A stretch of 39,153 nt of DNA from Gammaproteobacteria bacterium (GCA_022071965.1 JAJVIQ010000028.1:1-39153), one strand, 5' to 3'; counted from the stretch's first letter, positions 1 through 16,392 are shown. Notes: generated from the letters alone by a model not told the origin. Numbers and translations: made by a program.

Positions 1-87
1 ATGGGACCTCTCGGCCATATCCCTCCCGCAGAAGCTGAGGCAAACTACCACAGGCAACTTAACCGTCGGCCTGCGATGGCGGCGTAA
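1..87 (+). pseudogene. C-terminal tail of IS3-family transposase OrfB (cut by window edge)
   Basis: Frame 1 from the first base is open and gives 28 residues ending at TAA (85-87). It contains LGHIPPAEAEANY followed by a short basic and Ala-rich tail. The G-x-I-P-P-A-E-A-E-x-x-Y pattern is the characteristic end of the DDE integrase (OrfB) of many IS3-family elements. The rest of the gene is to the left of the window, so it may be intact there; I label it partial rather than proven broken. The ATG at base 1 is internal, not a start. Confidence 0.65.
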
Positions 88-126
88 CTTAAACCGAACA
101 GCCTCCCCGATACCCGGGGCGATTCA
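1..126 (+). mobile_element. Right end of an IS3-family insertion sequence (partial)
   Basis: The window opens inside an insertion sequence. The first 87 bases encode the carboxy end of an OrfB-type transposase. About 40 bases later comes a GC-rich end whose reverse complement starts TGAATCGCCCCGGG, the kind of terminal inverted repeat seen in IS3-family elements that begin TGAAC/TGAAT and GCCCCGGG. I place the element's outer end near base 126. The left part lies outside the window, so completeness cannot be judged. It borders the nuclease-helicase gene and supports reading the region up to the tRNA gene as acquired DNA. Confidence 0.6.
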
Positions 127-214
127 GTACGTCACGCGCATTGCAGGACCGTGGTCGGCCTAGATCATGCCGCAGTTATCGACTCAAGGAGCCATAGGGG
201 GGTTGGGGGATCAC

Positions 215-3200
215 ATGAATCCAATCGTGAGACACTTTCTTCCGTCATTAACTCGTGGTGTCTATCGCTACGACGATATGCTTGGGAGGGCGCTGACCTC
301 TCCTAGTGAGTATCCAACCTTCATTGAAGGGAAACTCCGATTTCTCCCGCTCTCACTCCTCCCATATTCTAAGAGAGCCTTGGGTATTTCGGACTCGGAT
401 ATCGAGGCGATTCAACCCACGCGACTCGGGCCTATTGTGACCACTGGTCATCAGCAACGTGCCTCTGAATATTTTCGGTCATTTGACTACTTCGCAAATG
501 CCAGAAATGGAGATGACATAGCTGGCAAGAACTATCTTGAGGTGAAGTTTGTATCCCAGATTCTAGCCCCCATCCTAAGTTCGGCTGGCCTGCGACAAGT
601 GATTCCCCAGCGCAAGGTAGGTCCGTACTTTCTTGATTTTGCGATTGAAGGTGAACGCAATTACGCCATTGAGGTAGATGGATTCGGTAAGTTCGAGCAT
701 CCGGGCGCCTTGGACAGATTTCTTGATCGCCAAAACTACATCATCGCGCGAGGGTGGCAGATCCATCGATTTAGCTATAACCAAATCATGGAGTCACCTA
801 GCGTGACCCAAAGACAGATTTATGACATCTTCCGTAAAGACCCAAGACTTGCATCCTGTCTTGAGGCACGACCGACAGAAGATCCTTATGACCTACTCGC
901 GACCGACAGCCACGACATAATTGCATTAGTTAATGATTTTTATCAGGTGCAGGATCATTTTGTCTTTAGGTCCGTTACACAAGAAAAAGAGAATACATAT
1001 GTGATTCGAGACAGCCTTGAATACCCGCTTCCTGTCGTGGCTTATTCATTGAACGCGCTATACATCTACCTCTCCGCGATTGAGAAGGTGGTTGACGTAG
1101 ATTTCGATCTGCCGAGTATCGATGTGTGGGGGGCTAAGGCACCAGTACAGATACCTCTTGATAGTAGGATTACTGTTGCTGCAACCAGGGAGGGTCCACA
1201 CGACACCTACACGCGGGACGCAATCAAGACCTATGCATCACTGGTCCCCACGCCATTTCGCGACGGTAACGTGCCAAGGTTTCGCGAGGGTCTTGGCCCG
1301 GGCGAGATCCATGAGTACATATCTCCAATAACATCTGATCTATTCGGTTACCCGGAAGGCACCACCCAGTTCCAAGACGAGACACTTCGCCGCTTGTGTG
1401 ATCGGCGCGACGTTCTCGGGATAGCGGCAACTGGTAGCGGGAAATCGCTGTGCTTCTGGCTACCGGCTCTAATTCGTCCGGGGCTCGTGTTGGTTGTGAG
1501 TCCTCTTCGGTCATTGATGCGAGATCAACAGCAAACGTTATTCAGTTACGGGATCGCGTCCATGGAATTCATCAACTCGGACGTTGCAAAAGAACAGCAG
1601 CAACGCATTCTGCATGAGGCAAAGCTCGGATACATCCGCATGCTCTATGTCGCCCCAGAACGCATGCGAATGCAGAGTTTTGTCAATCAGCTTTCTGAGC
1701 TTCAGTCATTCGTTCCAATCACAATCTTGGCGATTGATGAGGCTCACTGTATCTCCGAATGGGGACATGACTTCCGACCTTCTTATCTGAAACTCCCTCA
1801 ATGCCGGGACGTCCTTCGAAGAACCTATCCGGCACTGCAGCTCGTCGGTCTTACCGCCACGGCGGGGCAACAGGTTGAGAAAGACATCTTGAGAACGTTG
1901 TCACTTTCCGATGCGGATGTGCATCGTGGGCAAACGTCAGATCGCGAAAGGTTCAGCTATCAGGTCGCAAGAGCGCATGATGGAACATCGAAAGACGAGC
2001 TGTACCGTAGCATCATGACCACATCCGTGCCGCGGGCTTTGCGGCATCCGGATTTGCGCGCCCTGACGTCAAGCTGCAATCGTGAGGGGGAAAAGGCTGT
2101 TGGACTCGTATTCTGTATATATGCCGATCCGCATGGACAGCACTCAATTTGCGACGGCATCTCTCACTACCTGTACCAAACCCGGGAGGTGCTCGCGACG
2201 AGCCGTGAAGGTTTGCTCGACGGCACGGCTCCTTTGGATACCAGGATATATGGCACGGGGCCAGTGCGCGCATTCTCAAGTAAAGAACCTACGGTATGTC
2301 CACGCTGCAAGTCGTACGCGTACACAACAGCACGTGCCTTTCCAAGGGACGGCGCGGACGATGATGAAGAAGATGAGGATGGTGATATTAACGAAGTGCC
2401 CGCACGACAAAGAGGAATGAAGAAATGCCACAGATGTGGTTATGAGTTCTCAGGTGAAGATGCAAAAAAAATTGAAAACTGGAACAGTTTGACCCGGCAA
2501 AACCAGAACGATTTCAAGCACGGGCACTTCGATATCATGGTGTCAACGAAGGGATTCGGAATGGGAATTGACAAGGGAAGTGTGCGTTTCGTGGTTCACA
2601 CATCCATGCCGTCCGGAATTGAATCATGGTATCAAGAGGTTGGGCGTGCGGGCAGGGATAAAGAGAGGGCGCATACGGTACTTCTGGTAGATCCGCCGAC
2701 GGAGCAGTGTGAGAAGGACTTAAGGAGCAGGCAAATCAAAGAGCCACCCTGCAGTTACATACGCGGATGTCCGCATGGTCACAACAACGGCCTGTGCGAC
2801 TATGGGAAGCAACACATGTTCATCAAGCGGAGCTATCCCAGCGTTATCTCTGACGCTCTTGCAGCTGTAAGATTCATGGACCGCTTGTGTGTCCTCCTTG
2901 CCGCAGCCCCCGATAAGCAGATAGTCGTTAAGTCCGCATCGCCGTGGTTATCTCGCCACGAGCTGGCAGCACATCGGCTAGGCATAATTGGACTGATATC
3001 TGATTACGTAATCAGCTACCAACGTGCGATACCTCAACTGGAACTGACTCTCCCGAATCTGCTTCTTAAGGAGTCGGAGCGAAGCCAGAGTCACCTAGAG
3101 CAGTTAATGGGAAAGCGTCTCGAGGTCTATTTTCAGCAGGCGTCCCTAGAGAAGCACCTTACAATCCAGAAAAGGCGTGAACGGTGCAAGCCCTTCGGGC

Positions 3201-4054
3201 GCCTTGAGATGCATTTGGATGACAAAAAGCCGCTCTTGACATACGACACAAACAAAGCACTTCTAAACGCTACTTATGAGCATCTGATCGTGCTTTTAAA
3301 CCACGTCTACACGGAAGTGGTGAAGATGCGTTACGACATGCTTTGGAATCTTATGTCGGTCATCGACGCCGACAAAGACAACAGGTGTCGGCGGACCGTA
3401 TTTGTTCCTCATTTCGATGGGCGCAACAGTCTCGGCAACGATTATCGATGTAAAGCGTGCGACGTATGCTCGCCAGAGCTCGACTTCCCAGATATTAGAG
3501 TTACGCCGGTCACCAAGACGGATGTCGAAAAGGAAAATATACTGGCGCGACTTCTACATGAGGACATGTTTTTGGTATCAGATATCGAGTATCTGCGGGC
3601 CCTTCTTCCTGAGTTCGTTGATTACTCTGTGTCGAAGTACAGACAAGCGAGGGCCGTTCTGGAGGGCGATCCAAATAACCTGACCGCCTTGTTTATAAGT
3701 CGCGAGTTTTCGCCGGAGGACGAGCGAAAGGCGAATTGCCATCGACTTCTTGAGACAGCCAATCTACGGCCAGCACCTTTGGATGTTATTGATGCGATAT
3801 TCGAAAGTTCTCCACGCGAGATGAGGGGTGCTCTATATCTCGCGCTGGATGTCTCCAACTCCGCTGTAGATTGCGATAATGGATGGCGGCTGCTAATTGA
3901 CAAGGCGAAGCAGCCAAGCATTCGTGGGGATGGAGATGCGAGAACAATGGCGGAGTGCCTGAAGTTCTTTCTCTTCGTTGATAAGGAAATGAATGCGTTG
4001 GTTGATCGTCTTAGAACAAAGGCTAACGACATGGAAAGGGCGTTTTATGCCTGA
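215..4054 (+). CDS. DUF559-like nuclease / RecQ-family helicase fusion
   Basis: A 1279-residue protein counted from the ATG at 215, which has a G-rich Shine-Dalgarno-like run just upstream; an ATG at 167 is also possible. Residues about 100-215 match the Vsr/DUF559 PD-(D/E)XK fold: E109, D141, then E153-V-D155-G and the DRQNYIIARGW segment. Residues about 390-830 are a RecQ-type SF2 helicase with Walker A ATGSGKS (K410), DEAH 508-511 and motif VI QEVGRAGRD from 807. The second RecA lobe carries an insert with two zinc knuckles (CPRC 695, CHRC 738) and an acidic run between them. A RecQ zinc subdomain follows (C1058, C1079, C1082, C1085). The tail of about 190 residues is unrecognised. It overlaps the next gene by 8 bp. 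Ordinary RecQ is about 600 residues and lacks a nuclease. DNA unwinding coupled to cleavage, perhaps against phage or plasmid DNA, is inference. Confidence 0.85.
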   Translation: MNPIVRHFLPSLTRGVYRYDDMLGRALTSPSEYPTFIEGKLRFLPLSLLPYSKRALGISDSDIEAIQPTRLGPIVTTGHQQRASEYFRSFDYFANARNGDDIAGKNYLEVKFVSQILAPILSSAGLRQVIPQRKVGPYFLDFAIEGERNYAIEVDGFGKFEHPGALDRFLDRQNYIIARGWQIHRFSYNQIMESPSVTQRQIYDIFRKDPRLASCLEARPTEDPYDLLATDSHDIIALVNDFYQVQDHFVFRSVTQEKENTYVIRDSLEYPLPVVAYSLNALYIYLSAIEKVVDVDFDLPSIDVWGAKAPVQIPLDSRITVAATREGPHDTYTRDAIKTYASLVPTPFRDGNVPRFREGLGPGEIHEYISPITSDLFGYPEGTTQFQDETLRRLCDRRDVLGIAATGSGKSLCFWLPALIRPGLVLVVSPLRSLMRDQQQTLFSYGIASMEFINSDVAKEQQQRILHEAKLGYIRMLYVAPERMRMQSFVNQLSELQSFVPITILAIDEAHCISEWGHDFRPSYLKLPQCRDVLRRTYPALQLVGLTATAGQQVEKDILRTLSLSDADVHRGQTSDRERFSYQVARAHDGTSKDELYRSIMTTSVPRALRHPDLRALTSSCNREGEKAVGLVFCIYADPHGQHSICDGISHYLYQTREVLATSREGLLDGTAPLDTRIYGTGPVRAFSSKEPTVCPRCKSYAYTTARAFPRDGADDDEEDEDGDINEVPARQRGMKKCHRCGYEFSGEDAKKIENWNSLTRQNQNDFKHGHFDIMVSTKGFGMGIDKGSVRFVVHTSMPSGIESWYQEVGRAGRDKERAHTVLLVDPPTEQCEKDLRSRQIKEPPCSYIRGCPHGHNNGLCDYGKQHMFIKRSYPSVISDALAAVRFMDRLCVLLAAAPDKQIVVKSASPWLSRHELAAHRLGIIGLISDYVISYQRAIPQLELTLPNLLLKESERSQSHLEQLMGKRLEVYFQQASLEKHLTIQKRRERCKPFGRLEMHLDDKKPLLTYDTNKALLNATYEHLIVLLNHVYTEVVKMRYDMLWNLMSVIDADKDNRCRRTVFVPHFDGRNSLGNDYRCKACDVCSPELDFPDIRVTPVTKTDVEKENILARLLHEDMFLVSDIEYLRALLPEFVDYSVSKYRQARAVLEGDPNNLTALFISREFSPEDERKANCHRLLETANLRPAPLDVIDAIFESSPREMRGALYLALDVSNSAVDCDNGWRLLIDKAKQPSIRGDGDARTMAECLKFFLFVDKEMNALVDRLRTKANDMERAFYA

Positions 4055-5201
4055 ACGTGATTCCGCAAGAATTACAAGCATAGAAGCCATTCAAAAGCGC
4101 ATACAGATCTTCGATGAACAACTAAGCGAGGCAACAGAGGCGGCAAGGACGCTAGCAAGGATTCGGGGCGATGCATCGGAGCTGATGGAGCGCGCGGCGG
4201 AGCTGCACGAGATGCTGCGTCGCTCGTTGGCAGAGTCGGAGGGTCACCGGGAGGCGTTAGAGAGCATAAGGGACGAGTGGAGTGGACTAAAGGCTGACTA
4301 CAAGGCCGCAGAGGAGCGGTTGATCCAGGCGCATAAGAGCCTACTAGCGTCTTATGGGGAAAAGTTTCAGCAGATTGAACAGACGGCAAGCAAGACTGAA
4401 AAGCGGGTGCTCGAAGCGAGGGACAGCGTCATTGCTGAGACGAAGGCGCTTAAGGAGTTTGTCGTGGCTACCAAAATGGAGCTGACGAGCGAAATTCGCA
4501 AGGACTTCAGGATTGAGCTGGAATCACTCAAGTCCAACGTGCAGCAAGTGATGAATGGAGTTCAACAGACACTGAACGAAGGGGTATCACAGCGTAAGGA
4601 GGCGTACGAAGGTGCGATCAAGGATTTGAATGTGCGGCTAGTGAATGCTAACGAAAGCATGCGGGAGAAGGTGTCGGCCGCAGTGAAGAAGGTGGAGGAG
4701 CTCGCGAGAGAGTCGGCAGCTCGAAATGCTCAGGCGATTGTGAGGAGTGAAGCAAAGGTGCAGGAGGTTGTTACGTCAACTAAGAAAGCGTTGACGCGCG
4801 ATGTAGGTGAACATAAGGCCGCATTCGATAGGCAAGTTACTGAGTTTCTGGGAAGGCAAAATGTACTGGTGCAAAATCTAACACAGCAGGTTGACTCATT
4901 TCAGCATGGCGTCGCCACGTTGAAGGAGGACGTCGCCGTTATGAAACGCGACTTGGGCACAATTAAGCAGGATATTGTTTCAGTTCAAAGCGAAGGCGGC
5001 CTTGTGAAGGCAGATATCGCGAGGATTCGGGCAAATGAGATGCCCGCGCTGCTGCAGCGCGTTGACCGCATGGAAGGTAAAGTTGGTGCTGAGATGAAGA
5101 AGCTGGAGACGCGCCTCGTGGCGGTAACTAATAAGGTTAATGAAGTTGTTGGCAAGCTCGGAAAGGGCCTAAAGGGAATTATTTTCGGCATCAAGGAATA
5201 G
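4047..5201 (+). CDS. Long coiled-coil protein, partner of the nuclease-helicase
   Basis: A 384-residue protein, unrecognised by family. The ATG at 4047 lies inside the end of the helicase gene (8-bp overlap) and follows a GGAAAGGG ribosome site, so translation is probably coupled. Nearly the whole chain is charged heptad-like helix rich in Glu, Lys, Ala, Gln and Val, with no Cys cluster, no nucleotide-binding loop and no clear membrane span. Segments such as TLKEDVAVMKRDLGTIKQDIVSVQSE recur with a seven-residue rhythm typical of trimeric or tetrameric coiled coils. The carboxy end turns glycine-rich and hydrophobic (GKLGKGLKGIIFGIKE), perhaps a short membrane- or partner-binding tail. Coil-rich proteins coupled to helicases occur in anti-phage and SMC-like systems, but no specific function can be assigned. 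Confidence 0.8.
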   Translation: MPERDSARITSIEAIQKRIQIFDEQLSEATEAARTLARIRGDASELMERAAELHEMLRRSLAESEGHREALESIRDEWSGLKADYKAAEERLIQAHKSLLASYGEKFQQIEQTASKTEKRVLEARDSVIAETKALKEFVVATKMELTSEIRKDFRIELESLKSNVQQVMNGVQQTLNEGVSQRKEAYEGAIKDLNVRLVNANESMREKVSAAVKKVEELARESAARNAQAIVRSEAKVQEVVTSTKKALTRDVGEHKAAFDRQVTEFLGRQNVLVQNLTQQVDSFQHGVATLKEDVAVMKRDLGTIKQDIVSVQSEGGLVKADIARIRANEMPALLQRVDRMEGKVGAEMKKLETRLVAVTNKVNEVVGKLGKGLKGIIFGIKE

Positions 5202-5365
5202 TGGCACGAGAGCCGAGGAGGTGAAGCCGGGGCGGACGAATATCGGCAATGGTCTTGTGAGACGTTGTCAACGCCAAGGTGCGGTTTGCGCTTGAGACGC
5301 TACGATGTTTGCAATGGCGACTGGTAACGACTTCTCATAACGGTATCGCCCCCATTGCGCGGAAA

Positions 5366-5381
5366 CTGTATATGAGTACAG
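5366..5381. promoter_or_regulatory. LexA (SOS) operator
   Basis: The palindrome CTGTATATGAGTACAG has the CTG-N10-CAG form of the gammaproteobacterial SOS box, with an AT-rich core and TA following. It ends 9 bases before the ATG of the small ORF at 5391. In that position bound LexA would block the promoter or early transcription. The match is seen directly; regulation is inference. Confidence 0.7.
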
Positions 5382-5390
5382 TAGGCCGCC

Positions 5391-5714
5391 ATGCGCGTTC
5401 TGGTTCGGGTGTTTCGGAAGCGAGGAAGGCAATTGCCGTGGGGAGAGGTGGCGGTTGTCCCGCCCATCGAGGGTGATCTAGGGACCCACTACCAGCTATA
5501 CAGGGATCGGCCCTATCAGGTTGCAACGCTTCAGCTCACAAACACGGCCACGGCCGAGGCTGCACTTCCTCCACTTTATGAGCCCGTGCTGGTGGCTATA
5601 GGTGCGGGAGGTCTCCGACTTCGTGGTTTCGAGCGTCTGGCCGATGGGCATGCGGTCGTTCAGGAGTGGCTGTGCGAGGTGGTGCACTTCGTCGTCGCGT
5701 CGCCGAACAGATAG
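5391..5714 (+). CDS. Small hypothetical protein behind a LexA box
   Basis: A 107-residue ORF starting at the ATG at 5391, with a weak AGG five bases upstream; a stop codon at 5382 rules out a longer form. The chain has a basic start, then alternating beta-like stretches (YQVATLQLTN, PVLVAIGAGGLRLRGFERL) and a VVQEWLCEV segment. This pattern resembles short uncharacterised proteins I associate with genomic islands of proteobacteria, but I cannot name a family. It looks more protein-like than the overlapping antisense ORFs. The SOS box just upstream suggests DNA-damage induction, linking it to excision, transfer or stress functions of the region. Confidence 0.5.
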   Translation: MRVLVRVFRKRGRQLPWGEVAVVPPIEGDLGTHYQLYRDRPYQVATLQLTNTATAEAALPPLYEPVLVAIGAGGLRLRGFERLADGHAVVQEWLCEVVHFVVASPNR

Positions 5715-5846
5715 GCTGTTCGTGGGGCGCGACATCTTGGTCCGTGCGCAGGATAACTTAATCGCTCACTGAGGACTTAAATCGGACTTACGCTGATAAC
5801 GCACGGGGAGGACAAGCCGAGAAAATACGGTAATGCCTTGATATTA

Positions 5847-5922
<76 letters not shown>

Positions 5923-5938
5923 ACGTGAGGAGGCGCGT

Positions 5939-5967
5939 AGTTTACCCGCCCGGGGCGGCCGCGCCAA
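5939..5967 (-). promoter_or_regulatory. Sigma-70 promoter of tRNA-Ala
   Basis: On the minus strand TTGGCG (-35) is followed by exactly 17 bases and TAAACT (-10). The -10 box ends about 16 bases before the tRNA 5' end. The discriminator is GC-rich (ACGCGCC), which is typical of stringently controlled stable-RNA promoters. Confidence 0.6.
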
Positions 5968-6050
5968 TATGGACTGCCCGCAACCGTGGCCCGAACCGCC
6001 GCCTGGTTCGCAGTGTGCGCGAACCGTGACGCAGGATTCTAGCGCGTGGC

Positions 6051-6830
6051 TCAGGCCAGCCGCTTGCGCTTCATCTCGCGATCCAACTGGGCGATGAACT
6101 GCTCGAGGGCGTGCTGGTCGCTGCGGTCGACGTGCGCGAAGCGCACGCCGCAGCGCGAGATGCGCGAGGCCTGCACCACGTCGGCATAGCAGATCAGCCC
6201 GCTGCCGTGGATGCGCGCGCCGGAGGGCAGGGTGATGACGAGGTGCTGGATCTCGTTGCCCGTGGCGAATTCCGAAGGCGTCGCGCCGCGCAGTCGGGCG
6301 CTCAATCCGCCCATCGAGATATCCCGCAATTCGGCCGTGTACAACGTGCCGCTCGGCATCGCCAACTGCACGGGTATCTGCTTCTCCATCGGGACGCCCG
6401 CGCGGTAGTGTTCGCGGCGCTGTATGTAGTCGAGCACCGGCGGGAACCGCAGCTGGTAGTAGGGCAGGCCCGCCTCCTCGCCCACGGCACTCACCTCGGT
6501 CTCGAAACGGATGGTCACGTTGTTCATGCGGGCGCGCACGACAAGCCTGCGCTGGGGCTGGATGAACTTGTTGACGGCGCGCGGCGTGAGCTCGTCGATG
6601 ACGAGGTAGCTCTGGTTGCGAACCACCTCGATGACTGCGCTGGAGTAGTAGTCGTCGGTGCCGTCCACGCTCACGCCGAGCAGGCAGCGCTGTTCGTAGA
6701 GCTGCTCGAGGACGCGGGCGATCTGCTCCGGACGGGTGATCGCGTCCGGGTTGCTCAGGTCGACGAGGGGTTCGCGCTCTTCGCGCCGGGCAGGCGCCGC
6801 CTGGGACTTCGAGAATGGCCACAACGCCAC
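6051..6830 (-). CDS. ycgR: Flagellar brake protein YcgR (PilZ domain, c-di-GMP receptor)
   Basis: A 259-residue cytoplasmic protein. Residues about 30-130 match the YcgR N-terminal domain. The second half is a PilZ domain with the c-di-GMP-binding RxxxR in RREHYR and the D-x-S-x-x-G motif in DISMGG, so ligand binding should be intact. YcgR proteins bind the flagellar motor when c-di-GMP is high and slow swimming. The gene follows flgN by 34 bp and is last in the flgM-flgN-ycgR operon, an order common in gammaproteobacteria, so it is probably driven by the sigma-28 promoter ahead of flgM. The carboxy end is basic (MKRKRLA). Confidence 0.92.
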   Translation of the reverse strand: MALWPFSKSQAAPARREEREPLVDLSNPDAITRPEQIARVLEQLYEQRCLLGVSVDGTDDYYSSAVIEVVRNQSYLVIDELTPRAVNKFIQPQRRLVVRARMNNVTIRFETEVSAVGEEAGLPYYQLRFPPVLDYIQRREHYRAGVPMEKQIPVQLAMPSGTLYTAELRDISMGGLSARLRGATPSEFATGNEIQHLVITLPSGARIHGSGLICYADVVQASRISRCGVRFAHVDRSDQHALEQFIAQLDREMKRKRLA

Positions 6831-13589: not shown

Positions 13590-13675
13590 TGAGGGCCTCC
13601 CGCAGTTGCCGCCGGCTAGGCGCCCCGGCGGCCGCGGGGTTACACTTGGACGGTCAGCCACGTCCCCAAGGCTGC

Positions 13676-14407
13676 ATGATCCCACTGCACGACGACAATC
13701 CCACCCGCATCCAGCCGGTGGTCACGATGATGACCATAGCGCTGTGCGCGCTGGTGTTTCTCTGGCAGATGTCCCTCGGCGGCGAGGGCGGCCAGCGGGT
13801 CGTCTACAGTCTCGGCGTGATCCCGGCCGTGCTGTTCGACCGCGCCGAGTTGCCGGTGGAACTCGCGCTGGTGCCGGCCGAGGCGACGGTCTTCACCTCG
13901 ATGTTTCTGCACGGCGGCTTCATGCATCTGGCCGGCAACATGCTCTATCTGTGGATCTTCGGCAACAACGTCGAGGATTCCATGGGTCATGTGCGGTTCG
14001 CCGTCTTCTACCTGCTCTGCGGCGTGGTCGCAGCCGTCGGCCAGGCATGGATGCACCCGGACTCGCAGATCCCGATGATCGGGGCGAGCGGCGCGATCTC
14101 GGGGGTACTCGGGGCCTATCTGCTGCTGTATCCGCACGCGCGGGTGCTCACCGTGGTGCCGCTGGGCTTCTATGCGCAGATGATCCGGCTCCCGGCACTG
14201 ATCGTGCTGGGGTTCTGGTTCGTCATGCAGATATTCTCCTCAGCGATGGCCGGTGGCGGGGAGAAGGGTGGCGTGGCCTGGTTTGCACACGTAGGGGGAT
14301 TCATCGCCGGCATGATGCTCATACCTGTTTTCAAGCATCGCGACGTGCCGTTGTTCCACCCCGCACAACCCGCGCCGGCGCTGCCGGATGGCCGCCGCCG
14401 CTGGTGA
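13676..14407 (+). CDS. Rhomboid-family intramembrane serine protease
   Basis: A 243-residue polytopic membrane protein with about six or seven spans. The catalytic Ser is in GASGAISGVLGAY and the catalytic His in the last spans at FAHVGGFIAGM. The conserved L1 loop region HGGFMHLAGNMLYLWIFGNNVED is also present. The ATG at 13676 is used because upstream in-frame sequence to 13502 is Arg/Gly-rich and not protein-like, and an AAGG lies just before it. It cleaves transmembrane substrates, here unknown. It overlaps the next cupin gene by 20 bp, suggesting co-expression. Confidence 0.9.
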   Translation: MIPLHDDNPTRIQPVVTMMTIALCALVFLWQMSLGGEGGQRVVYSLGVIPAVLFDRAELPVELALVPAEATVFTSMFLHGGFMHLAGNMLYLWIFGNNVEDSMGHVRFAVFYLLCGVVAAVGQAWMHPDSQIPMIGASGAISGVLGAYLLLYPHARVLTVVPLGFYAQMIRLPALIVLGFWFVMQIFSSAMAGGGEKGGVAWFAHVGGFIAGMMLIPVFKHRDVPLFHPAQPAPALPDGRRRW

Positions 14408-14726
14408 ATCCGGGTTGACCACCGGCCACTGGGACGAGGGGCTCGACGGTCCGCTGTCCGAGGCCTCCCTCGGCAGGAAGCTCGCGGCGATGGGGTACCG
14501 CGCGACCATGTACGCCTATCCGCCGGGGACCCGGTTCCCGCCGCACAGCCATGCCGTGGACAAGATCGACGCCGTGCTGAGCGGGCGATTCCGGATCACC
14601 CTGCGGGAGGGCGCGGTGGAACTCGGGGCGGGCGACTGGGTGATGGTGCCCGCGGGGGCGGTGCACTCCGCCGAGGTCGTGGGGGAGGACCCCGTGGTCA
14701 GCCTGGACGCGGTCCGGGGGGCCTGA
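14388..14726 (+). CDS. Small single-domain cupin
   Basis: A 112-residue protein with one cupin fold. Motif 1 lies around PPGTRFPPHSHAVDKIDAVLSGRF, where His residues and an acidic residue can bind a metal. Motif 2 is GAGDWVMVPAGAVHSAEV with a His. The first 35 residues are a less regular lead. It overlaps the rhomboid gene by 20 bp and has no assigned substrate. A second cupin occurs as the C-terminal domain of the next gene, so the two may share a ligand or ancestry, but sequence similarity by eye is only at motif level. Confidence 0.8.
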   Translation: MAAAAGESGLTTGHWDEGLDGPLSEASLGRKLAAMGYRATMYAYPPGTRFPPHSHAVDKIDAVLSGRFRITLREGAVELGAGDWVMVPAGAVHSAEVVGEDPVVSLDAVRGA

Positions 14727-14802
14727 AGAGGTATGGCACGCTCCATGCTGCGGCAGGCGTGCATATATACTAGAAACAACAACATTCGGGGGTAACAGGC
14801 GG

Positions 14803-16392
14803 ATGGACAAGCAAGAAGGTGCCGCTCCGGAATTCGCCGGTCTGCTTTATCGTCAGACACGGAACGAGGCACCGGGTCTGGCCGTGGCGGGTCTGGTCTT
14901 CGCCTTCCTTTGTCACGACCACGTGGACAGGCGCCTGCTCGTCGGCTGGGTGGTCGCGGTCGCGCTCATCATCGGGGTGCGGCTGTGGCTGGCCGGGCTG
15001 TATCGCTCCCGTGGGCGGCGCCACAAGCGGCCGCGCAACCCCGCCTGGTACCACGGATTCATCGCCGGCGCCGGCCTGCTGGGCCTGGCCTTCGGCGGGC
15101 TCGGGTTCCTGGCCGTGCGTCACGCCGACATCGAGGCCGCCAGCGTCCTGCTGTTCTGGCTGGCCTTCGCCACCATCTGCACGGTGCCCATCTATGGCGG
15201 CATCCGGGCGCCGGTGCTGGCCTTCGCGGTGCCCGCCCTGCTGCCGGCGAGCCTGAGCATGCTCGCCAGAGGCAACGCCCAGGCCTCGGCGATTGGGGTC
15301 ATCATGCTGGTCGCCCTCGGACTGACAATCTTCGCCTCGCGTGCCCTTTTTCGCGTCAACAACCGGATGCTGGTGCTGGAGGACGACGTCCAGCAGATGC
15401 GCGGCGTCCTGGAGGCCCGTCGCACCGAGATCGACAAGCTCAACCAGAGCGTGCGCGTCAACAACGAGCGCCGGCAGGTGGCGGAGAATGAGGCGAAGCG
15501 CGCCGGGGCGGACCTCGGCCTGATGAAGAGCAAGGCGCAGGCGCTCTCGGAGACACTGAGCCGGGTCTCACCATTGTGCCCGGTCACCGGCATCGCCAAC
15601 CGCCGCACGTTCGAGGAGCACCTGGACGCGGAGTGGCGCCGGCAGATGCGCGCGAAGCGGCCGCTCTCGCTGCTGATGTGCGAGATCGACGAATTCGATC
15701 ATTATCGCGAGGCGCATGGTGCACAGGCCGCCGATGCAATGCTGCACCGGATCGCGCGCCTGGCTGCCGCGATCGGGCGCCGCCCCGGCGATCTGGCGGC
15801 GCGCTACGACGGCGCGGGGCTTGCCATTCTGCTGCCGGACTGCGACGGCCGCAACGCGGTCCGCATCGCCGATGCGCTGCGCAAGCGCATCGAGCAGCAG
15901 AAGATCCCGCACGAGGTCGTGCACGCGGGGCAGACGCTCACGGCCCACGTCGGCGTCGCCACGCTGATCCCCATCAAGGAATATGAGCCGGCAGAGCTGG
16001 TCAAGCGCATCGACACCGCCCTCTACGAGGCCCGCTTCCAGGGCGGCAACTGCGTGGTGTCCTTCCGCACCATGGACAAGCTCAAGGTCGAGCATTGGGA
16101 TCCGAAGACCGACGACCTGCTCAGCAAGCAGTCGATGCTGCAGAAGATCATGATCCGGGGCTACAAGTGCCAGCCGGTGGGGTATCCGCCGAGCAGTGTG
16201 TTGCCCGACAAGAATGCCGACGTCGAGACCGTGTGCGCGCTCTACCAGGGTGAGATGAAGCTCATCATCGAGGGCGAATCGATGCTCCTGCGTGCCGGCG
16301 ACTGCATCTACATCCCGCCGGCCACCACCTGGGGTGCCGAGGTCGTCAGCGCCCGCGACGTGCTCGGCTTCGAGGGCGTGCGCGCCAACTGA
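14803..16392 (+). CDS. Membrane protein with degenerate GGDEF (I-site kept) and C-terminal cupin
   Basis: A 529-residue protein. Residues about 25-185 hold roughly six membrane spans. Residues about 190-260 are a coiled coil. Residues about 265-425 are a GGDEF domain whose signature is DGAGL (336-340) instead of GGDEF, so cyclase activity is very unlikely. The allosteric site RPGD (327-330), at the correct spacing, is intact, which suggests c-di-GMP binding. Residues about 450-525 form a cupin (LIIEGESMLLRAGDCIYIPPATTWGAEV). The likely role is a membrane c-di-GMP receptor with a small-molecule or metal module. A TATACT -10-like box lies at 14766. Pairing with ycgR in the window points to c-di-GMP control of motility or surface behaviour, as inference. 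Confidence 0.85.
   Translation: MDKQEGAAPEFAGLLYRQTRNEAPGLAVAGLVFAFLCHDHVDRRLLVGWVVAVALIIGVRLWLAGLYRSRGRRHKRPRNPAWYHGFIAGAGLLGLAFGGLGFLAVRHADIEAASVLLFWLAFATICTVPIYGGIRAPVLAFAVPALLPASLSMLARGNAQASAIGVIMLVALGLTIFASRALFRVNNRMLVLEDDVQQMRGVLEARRTEIDKLNQSVRVNNERRQVAENEAKRAGADLGLMKSKAQALSETLSRVSPLCPVTGIANRRTFEEHLDAEWRRQMRAKRPLSLLMCEIDEFDHYREAHGAQAADAMLHRIARLAAAIGRRPGDLAARYDGAGLAILLPDCDGRNAVRIADALRKRIEQQKIPHEVVHAGQTLTAHVGVATLIPIKEYEPAELVKRIDTALYEARFQGGNCVVSFRTMDKLKVEHWDPKTDDLLSKQSMLQKIMIRGYKCQPVGYPPSSVLPDKNADVETVCALYQGEMKLIIEGESMLLRAGDCIYIPPATTWGAEVVSARDVLGFEGVRAN

What the first reader, a model, noticed from the sequence alone, without database searches (positions are those of the whole stretch)
215..5201. 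Candidate two-gene system: nuclease-RecQ helicase plus coiled-coil partner
Seen: a 1279-residue protein with intact DUF559-type nuclease residues (E109, D141, E153, D155) and a full set of RecQ helicase motifs, overlapping by 8 bp with a 384-residue coiled-coil protein. The DNA is lower in G+C than its surroundings and lies between an IS3 end and a tRNA. Established: DUF559 and RecQ-like helicases occur in defence systems such as the many helicase-nuclease pairs of defence islands. Inferred: the pair is a self-contained anti-mobile-element or DNA-repair module. I do not recognise it as a named system.
Basis: partly seen in the sequence, partly recalled or inferred. Interest (0 to 1): 0.8.

Follow-up and report, generated by a model that had tools for sequence, protein, structure and literature searches.

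The report
Nuclease-RecQ helicase with coiled-coil partner
A two-gene unit on a mobile island encodes a DNA-cutting, DNA-unwinding enzyme and a long coiled-coil protein that in most relatives carries a membrane tail; the same pair recurs in unrelated bacteria, often beside anti-virus genes, so it is probably an undescribed defence system against foreign DNA.

Summary
In detail: a 1279-aa protein (Vsr/DUF559-type nuclease plus complete RecQ motor) overlaps by 8 bp a 384-aa coiled-coil gene, on low-G+C DNA between an IS end and tRNA-Ala. The right island edge is exactly the tRNA 3' end; a sister genome lacks everything to the left. Across the IS (3-bp duplication GTA) the island continues without further genes of the system.

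The pair is real and recurrent. Relatives occur in Competibacteraceae, Thermus, Thermomicrobium, Deinococcus, Salinibacter, Haliscomenobacter, E. coli/Klebsiella/Raoultella and another gammaproteobacterium. In 10 of 10 loci with a readable downstream gene, that gene is a coiled coil; in 8 of 10 it ends in a membrane helix. The helicases form two supported groups outside canonical RecQ; the window's group has a zinc ribbon inserted in RecA2. In Competibacteraceae the two genes alone split TPR-lolB; elsewhere they sit beside DISARM, MZA and R-M genes. No named system fits: PADLOC hits (DpdF, PsyrT) cover only the motor.

Most likely: a mobile, unnamed defence module in which a helicase-nuclease is tethered or assembled by a coiled-coil partner. 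Defence is inferred, not tested. The nuclease is optional; two members lack it.

The parts
1..126 (.). right end of an IS3-family insertion sequence (ends ...GATTCA), directly followed by target-site copy GTA
   Evidence: same 126-127 bp at two other contig ends; left end with matching inverted repeat on contig C32 preceded by GTA
215..4054 (+). gene A: nuclease-RecQ helicase, 1279 aa
   Evidence: open frame, Pfam DEAD/Helicase_C/DUF559/MTES_1575, relatives aligned
530..874 (+). Vsr/DUF559-type PD-(D/E)XK nuclease domain (E109, D141, E153, D155)
   Evidence: Pfam, conserved residues, AF2 model pLDDT 78.7, best plausible fold match I-Bth0305I catalytic domain 3r3p, probability 1.00, E 0.018
875..1324 (+). 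middle domain shared with relatives of both groups, not a Pfam family
   Evidence: alignments; weakly conserved
1364..1879 (+). RecQ motor RecA1 (Walker A, DEAH)
   Evidence: Pfam DEAD 1.2e-23
2297..2437 (+). zinc-ribbon insertion in RecA2 (CPRC...CHRC), mark of this group
   Evidence: in 7 of 7 group A members, in none of group B or 11 canonical RecQs
2498..2659 (+). RecQ motor RecA2, motifs V and VI
   Evidence: Pfam Helicase_C 1.2e-10
2945..3469 (+). winged-helix-like segment and displaced RecQ-type zinc motif (YRCKACDVC)
   Evidence: alignments; the winged-helix reading is inference
4047..4054 (+). 8-bp overlap of the two genes (coupling)
   Evidence: overlaps of 4-29 bp or gaps of 3-16 bp in eight of nine relatives, 102 bp in Salinibacter
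4047..5201 (+). gene B: coiled-coil partner, 384 aa
   Evidence: heptad periodicity reached in 1 of 500 shuffles; coiled-coil gene at the same place in 10 of 10 readable loci
5136..5192 (+). hydrophobic/amphipathic C-terminal tail of gene B, at the place of the membrane helix of relatives
   Evidence: most hydrophobic 18-mers of the protein, but mean KD only 0.83: not a membrane helix
5847..5922 (-). tRNA-Ala(cgc), whose 3' end (5847) is the right edge of the island
   Evidence: ARAGORN; sister genome G001 aligns only from 5847 rightwards

Best explanation
A mobile two-gene defence module. Gene A is a RecQ-type DNA motor (3'-5' by family knowledge) with an N-terminal Vsr/DUF559 nuclease and an extra zinc ribbon; gene B is a long coiled coil that binds gene A's product and gathers it into an assembly, in most family members at the inner membrane through a C-terminal membrane helix, here perhaps through an amphipathic tail. 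On entry or replication of foreign DNA (phage, plasmid, transforming DNA) the helicase is thought to load on it, unwind it and let the nuclease cut it. Shown: both genes, intact motifs, recurrence of the pair, island position, frequent defence-island context. Inferred: physical interaction, membrane placement, foreign-DNA target, cutting as the outcome. Probabilities: defence/anti-mobile-DNA function about 0.65; direct attack on the invading DNA, given defence, about 0.6; membrane or scaffold role of the coiled coil about 0.6.
For: Partner conserved: directly downstream coiled coil in 10 of 10 loci with readable downstream DNA, 8 with a C-terminal membrane helix 1-6 residues from the end. Sporadic distribution: no group A member in 368 other gammaproteobacteria or 397 other Pseudomonadota, yet present in Pseudomonadota, Deinococcota and Thermomicrobiota, mostly on plasmids, with group B in Rhodothermota, Bacteroidota and Enterobacteriaceae. 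Mobile: island edge exactly at the tRNA-Ala 3' end; two genes alone between TPR and lolB in Competibacteraceae. Defence neighbourhoods: DISARM DrmA/DUF1998 in Haliscomenobacter, type I R-M and MZA in E. coli, methylase plus PLD-SNF2 helicase in T. altitudinis, DrmD/DpdE-like helicase and DrmMI-like methylase in T. thermophilus. Catalytic residues of motor and nuclease kept; nuclease fold supported.
Against: No functional data. The window, Competibacteraceae, Thermomicrobium and G105 loci have no recognisable defence neighbours. Nuclease absent in Thermomicrobium and Deinococcus and altered in G105 (EPGD instead of E-x-D-G), so cutting cannot be essential to the family. The window's own partner lacks a membrane helix. 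In Raoultella/E. coli and Deinococcus the module is combined with HAD, phosphoribosyltransferase and DprA parts, which points to a toxin-antitoxin or abortive mode at least there.
Confidence: 0.6

Rival explanations
1. Abortive-infection or toxin-antitoxin type module: the helicase-nuclease is genotoxic and held in check by the coiled coil (or by DprA where present), as RqlI restrains RqlH; infection releases it and the host dies or stalls.
For: RecQ-PRTase RqlH is genotoxic without DprA-like RqlI (PMC4670107); DprA-PRTase pairs give phage protection (PMC9122126); relatives in Raoultella/E. coli and Deinococcus carry PRTase, HAD and DprA parts in the same operon.
Against: The window module has no PRTase, HAD or DprA, and the island across the IS shows none. 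RqlH toxicity was traced to the PRTase domain, which is absent here. I know of no coiled coil that acts as antitoxin of a RecQ enzyme.
Confidence: 0.2
2. DNA-repair or replication accessory of mobile elements: a RecQ variant that helps plasmids and islands to replicate, segregate or recombine, the coiled coil serving as a structural partner.
For: Many copies are on plasmids and in Thermus next to ParA/ParB genes; RecQ enzymes are repair helicases.
Against: Thermus ParAB looks like plasmid context, not a constant neighbour; the copies in the window, Competibacteraceae, E. coli chromosome and G105 lie in chromosomes without partition genes nearby; a conserved nuclease and neighbouring restriction systems fit defence better. 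The host keeps its own RecQ (G000:C17).
Confidence: 0.12
3. Degenerate or passenger DNA: a horizontally acquired pair without present function in this genome, disturbed by the upstream IS.
For: An IS3-family element sits about 90 bp upstream of gene A, and the window protein is a long branch.
Against: Both frames are fully open over 5 kb with all catalytic motifs intact; the IS lies outside the coding sequence.
Confidence: 0.08

Closest known systems
RqlH/RqlI and PsyrTA (RecQ-like helicase + DprA-like protein)
   Same: RecQ-type motor in a small mobile operon; a relative of the present family (Raoultella/E. coli) even carries HAD + PRTase + DUF559 + RecQ with a DprA gene upstream
   Different: RqlH/PsyrT have a phosphoribosyltransferase domain and a DprA partner; the window has neither, and has a nuclease, a zinc ribbon and a coiled-coil partner. 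The PADLOC PsyrT hit (222 bits) covers the motor only
DpdF of the 7-deazapurine (Dpd) system
   Same: RecQ-like helicase; best PADLOC name by score (280 bits)
   Different: match restricted to the motor; NCBIfam DpdF 149.5 bits against a cut-off of 550; no other Dpd gene among the window's proteins examined
Canonical RecQ
   Same: motor motifs, RecQ-type CxxCDxC zinc motif
   Different: TIGR01389 287 bits against cut-off 640; nuclease, middle domain, zinc ribbon, displaced zinc motif and coiled-coil partner; separate clade
MTES_1575/DUF559 (Vsr-like) nucleases and I-Bth0305I catalytic domain
   Same: nuclease fold and E/D/ExD residues
   Different: here fused to a RecQ motor
Zorya (membrane ZorAB with helicase/nuclease), from general knowledge
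   Same: works-like idea: membrane-linked coiled coil combined with a DNA-degrading helicase
   Different: no MotA/MotB-type channel; the weak ZorA hits of gene B reflect coiled-coil composition

Membership tests
Canonical RecQ (TIGR01389) | full-length score above the curated cut-off | tested here: not met
   286.9 bits, cut-off 640.2
RecQ superfamily motor (TIGR00614, Pfam DEAD + Helicase_C) | score above cut-off and intact motifs | tested here: met
   TIGR00614 272.7 bits, cut-off 219.8; Pfam; motifs
DpdF / Dpd system | DpdF equivalog score (NF041063) | tested here: not met
   149.5 bits, cut-off 550
DpdF / Dpd system | companion dpdA and other dpd genes | tested here: inconclusive
   none among the window and island proteins scanned, but not every gene of the 39-kb window was scanned
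PsyrTA / RqlHI | phosphoribosyltransferase domain on the RecQ protein | tested here: not met
   no Pribosyltran match in the window protein
PsyrTA / RqlHI | adjacent DprA-like gene | tested here: not met
   none in 5202-6100 or in the 4.4-kb island part across the IS
DUF559/Vsr-type PD-(D/E)XK nuclease | fold and catalytic acidic residues | tested here: met
   DUF559 23.5 bits over cut-off 20.6, MTES_1575 34.4 below 38.2; residues; fold, although no Foldseek hit has E below 0.001
Present family (nuclease-RecQ + coiled coil) | coiled-coil gene directly downstream, same strand | tested here: met
   10 of 10 readable loci
Present family (nuclease-RecQ + coiled coil) | C-terminal membrane helix on the partner (common, not universal) | tested here: not met
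   present in 8 of 10 partners, absent in the window and Deinococcus
Anti-phage defence system | protects a host against phage | not testable with these tools
   needs a plaque assay

The most novel reading that the evidence does not exclude
A new class of defence system in which a RecQ helicase-nuclease is held at the cell membrane by a tail-anchored coiled coil and meets foreign DNA as it enters; a core module (RecQ + coiled coil) that different lineages equip with a nuclease, a PRTase/HAD/DprA unit or a second helicase.
Probability: 0.3. Interest if true: 0.8.

Novelty: new variant of a known kind. Interest (0 to 1): 0.62.

Why it matters
Helicase-nuclease modules are a main source of new defence systems. 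This one couples a repair-type helicase to a mostly tail-anchored coiled coil, recurs in several phyla with exchangeable effector parts, and is hidden under the names 'DEAD/DEAH helicase' and 'hypothetical protein' (or the motor-level label DpdF in PADLOC). The E. coli/Klebsiella relatives make it directly testable in laboratory E. coli.

Tried and rejected
Full-length AF2 model: mean pLDDT 42.7, not used except to choose the nuclease part. Degenerate-pattern scan of viral contigs with A1: no relative; with A8: no stretch conserved enough. Phage records: no match to the C-terminal part. Partner protein by tblastn in plasmids: no match, so the partner is recognised by place and type, not by sequence. 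Topoisomerase III-RecQ fusions in G059/G195 matched weakly and were rejected. Profile A8 over 398 Pseudomonadota mostly caught single DUF559/Vsr nucleases; ten regions with long frames were read and none is a family member. A duplicated tRNA 3' end (attachment repeat) was looked for and not found. A first IS pattern was mistyped by one base, and a first motor tree held too few canonical RecQs. Literature searches for RecQ + DUF559, DpdF + RecQ, DUF559 + antiphage and related terms found no description of this pair; the library lacks most subscription journals, so absence is weak evidence.

Full report
OBSERVATION. Gene A (215-4054, +, 1279 aa) and gene B (4047-5201, +, 384 aa) overlap by 8 bp. 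Gene A has Pfam matches to DEAD (1.2e-23), Helicase_C (1.2e-10), REase_MTES_1575 (2.4e-8, below its cut-off) and DUF559 (5.3e-5, above its cut-off). TIGR00614 (RecQ family) is met with 272.7 bits against 219.8; the RecQ equivalog TIGR01389 is not met (286.9 against 640.2). G+C is 0.50-0.53 over 1-5000 and 0.63-0.72 from 6 kb on.

ISLAND. The window begins at a contig end of its genome (C21). Bases 1-126 are the end of an IS3-family element; the same bases end contigs C28 and C36. In a sister genome of the same genus (G001) the alignment starts exactly at window base 5847, the 3' end of tRNA-Ala, and runs rightwards at 91% identity. On the other side of that tRNA, G001 has genes that in the window's genome lie on contig C32. 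The end of C32 carries the opposite IS end, with a matching inverted repeat, and the base triplet before it is GTA, the same as after the IS in the window, whereas the other two IS copies are flanked by other triplets. The simplest reading, inferred because the contigs are not physically joined, is one island between tRNA-Ala and the neighbouring core genes, into which an IS jumped about 90 bp before gene A. Across the IS the island holds a 167-aa unknown protein, a resolvase and a transposase resembling IstA of IS21 (the IstA name is by eye). No DprA, HAD, phosphoribosyltransferase or extra helicase was seen there. No second copy of the tRNA 3' end was found.

RELATIVES, GROUP A (with zinc ribbon). 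tblastn against plasmids gave Thermus thermophilus, Thermomicrobium roseum and Deinococcus wulumuqiensis; a scan of 84,980 species genomes with a profile of the C-terminal part added Thermus altitudinis, T. composti, a Competibacteraceae MAG and a contig of MAG J014. All seven compared members have a zinc ribbon (CPxC...CxxC) between the helicase motifs of RecA2, and the RecQ-type CxxCDxC motif moved far downstream; eleven canonical RecQs lack the ribbon. The motor tree puts group A, group B and canonical RecQ each on one side of a branch with at least 98/95 support. The window's own branch is long, so its place inside group A is unsure.

RELATIVES, GROUP B (no ribbon). Salinibacter ruber plasmid pSR56, Haliscomenobacter hydrossis plasmid pHALHY02, Raoultella/Klebsiella/E. 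coli plasmids and three E. coli chromosomes, and two gammaproteobacterial genomes (G105; G317 cut by a contig end) encode proteins with the same order: nuclease, middle domain, RecQ motor, C-terminal helical part. The Raoultella/E. coli form adds HAD and phosphoribosyltransferase parts at its N-terminus and a DprA gene upstream (the PRTase part rests on the ShosT match and reading by eye).

PARTNER. In all ten loci where the DNA downstream is readable (window, L021, L022, L024, L025, L027, L028, L080, L083, L086) the next gene on the same strand is a coiled coil of 87-391 aa, beginning 29 bp before to 16 bp after the helicase stop in nine cases and 102 bp after it in Salinibacter. T. thermophilus AA1-1 has a transposase there and a shortened helicase; L026 and L087 are cut by contig ends. 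Hydrophobic residues follow the coiled-coil period better than nearly all shuffles in nine of the ten (0-4 of 500 shuffles; G105, 87 aa, 16 of 500). Eight of ten end in a membrane-helix-like segment 1-6 residues from the C-terminus (mean KD 1.98-2.73). The window's partner has its most hydrophobic stretch at the same place, but it is weak (0.83) and amphipathic; the Deinococcus partner has none. The partner sequences are too divergent to find each other by BLAST.

NUCLEASE. E109, D141 and E153 are invariant in the four group A members aligned, with D or E at 155. An AF2 model of the isolated domain has mean pLDDT 78.7. Foldseek puts the I-Bth0305I catalytic domain (probability 1.00, TM 0.72-0.73 by target length, rmsd 3.2) and TnsA among the top hits, though no hit has E below 0.001 and some ribosomal chains rank alongside. 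Thermomicrobium and Deinococcus lack the domain, and G105 has an altered site. The nuclease is therefore an equipment of the module, not its core.

CONTEXT. In Competibacteraceae the two genes lie precisely between the TPR gene (ends 7505) and lolB (starts 12026) downstream of hemA (gene names hemA and lolB by eye): the unit is two genes. Defence genes are neighbours in T. altitudinis (Eco57I-type methylase, PLD-SNF2 helicase), T. thermophilus (DrmD/DpdE-like helicase, DrmMI-like methylase), Haliscomenobacter (DrmA 602 bits and a DUF1998 gene), E. coli ET846 (type I R-M, MZA), Raoultella (type I R) and Salinibacter (methyltransferase, GIY-YIG nuclease). In Deinococcus the operon adds a DruE/MrfA-like helicase fused to HAD and phosphoribosyltransferase and a HAD-DprA fusion. 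No enrichment statistic against matched controls was computed. Group A was found in no other of 369 gammaproteobacterial and 398 Pseudomonadota genomes (in such searches only the best few candidates per genome are scored), group B in two of 369.

MECHANISM. Shown: a conserved operon of a RecQ-type motor, usually with a nuclease, and a coiled coil that is mostly tail-anchored, on mobile DNA. Inferred: the two proteins bind each other; the coiled coil gathers or tethers the enzyme; the target is foreign DNA; the helicase unwinds and the nuclease cuts. The main rival is a toxin-antitoxin or abortive mode, suggested by the PRTase/DprA parts of cousins and by RqlH/RqlI (PMC4670107; PMC9122126), but those parts are missing here.

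COMPARISON AND NOVELTY. PADLOC's best names (DpdF 280 bits, PsyrT 222 bits) come from the motor; the NCBIfam DpdF cut-off is missed by far. PADLOC model PDLC02868 (called DpdF) does cover the nuclease-RecQ part of the Raoultella protein almost fully (17-1002 of 1078, 375 bits), so a close cousin has been swept into that library under the DpdF name, but not the pair as a system. No paper in the searched library describes the pair. I file it as a new variant of a known kind (helicase-nuclease defence modules), with defence inferred.

Noticed in passing
L064:3141-8327 (G317:C114): 1728-aa fusion that looks like an exonuclease domain, a RecQ motor and a UvrD-type helicase, near a DNA methyltransferase and a putative restriction gene.
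   Followed up: no
L062:5962-9318 and L063:3595-7452 (G059, G195): Topoisomerase III-like protein fused to a RecQ helicase in a chromosomal locus of two species of one genus (two frames in G059).
   Followed up: partly
L022:4731-8975 and 13674-15092 (Deinococcus wulumuqiensis plasmid pDrdI): 1414-aa DruE/MrfA-like helicase fused to HAD and phosphoribosyltransferase parts, and a HAD-DprA fusion, on either side of the RecQ-coiled-coil pair.
   Followed up: partly
L026 (MAG 'Acidobacteria bacterium J014'): The contig is so close to Thermus plasmids (ParB plus nuclease-RecQ) that it may be mis-binned Thermus DNA.
   Followed up: no
PADLOC models named DpdF and PsyrT: Several of them give about 200 bits or more to every RecQ motor of this family, so DpdF or PsyrT calls without partner genes should be treated with caution.
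   Followed up: partly
window 1-126, G000:C28 and G000:C36 ends: At least three copies of one IS3-family element in this genome; the other two lie at the edge of polysaccharide-type gene clusters.
   Followed up: partly
window 5391-5714: 107-aa open frame between gene B and tRNA-Ala without any Pfam, PADLOC or NCBIfam match; gene status unclear.
   Followed up: no
L080:1294-4305 (Salinibacter pSR56): 1003-aa protein with an NTPase-like P-loop (GPPGSGKS) directly upstream of the nuclease-RecQ gene, without a PADLOC match; looks like a STAND-type ATPase.
   Followed up: no
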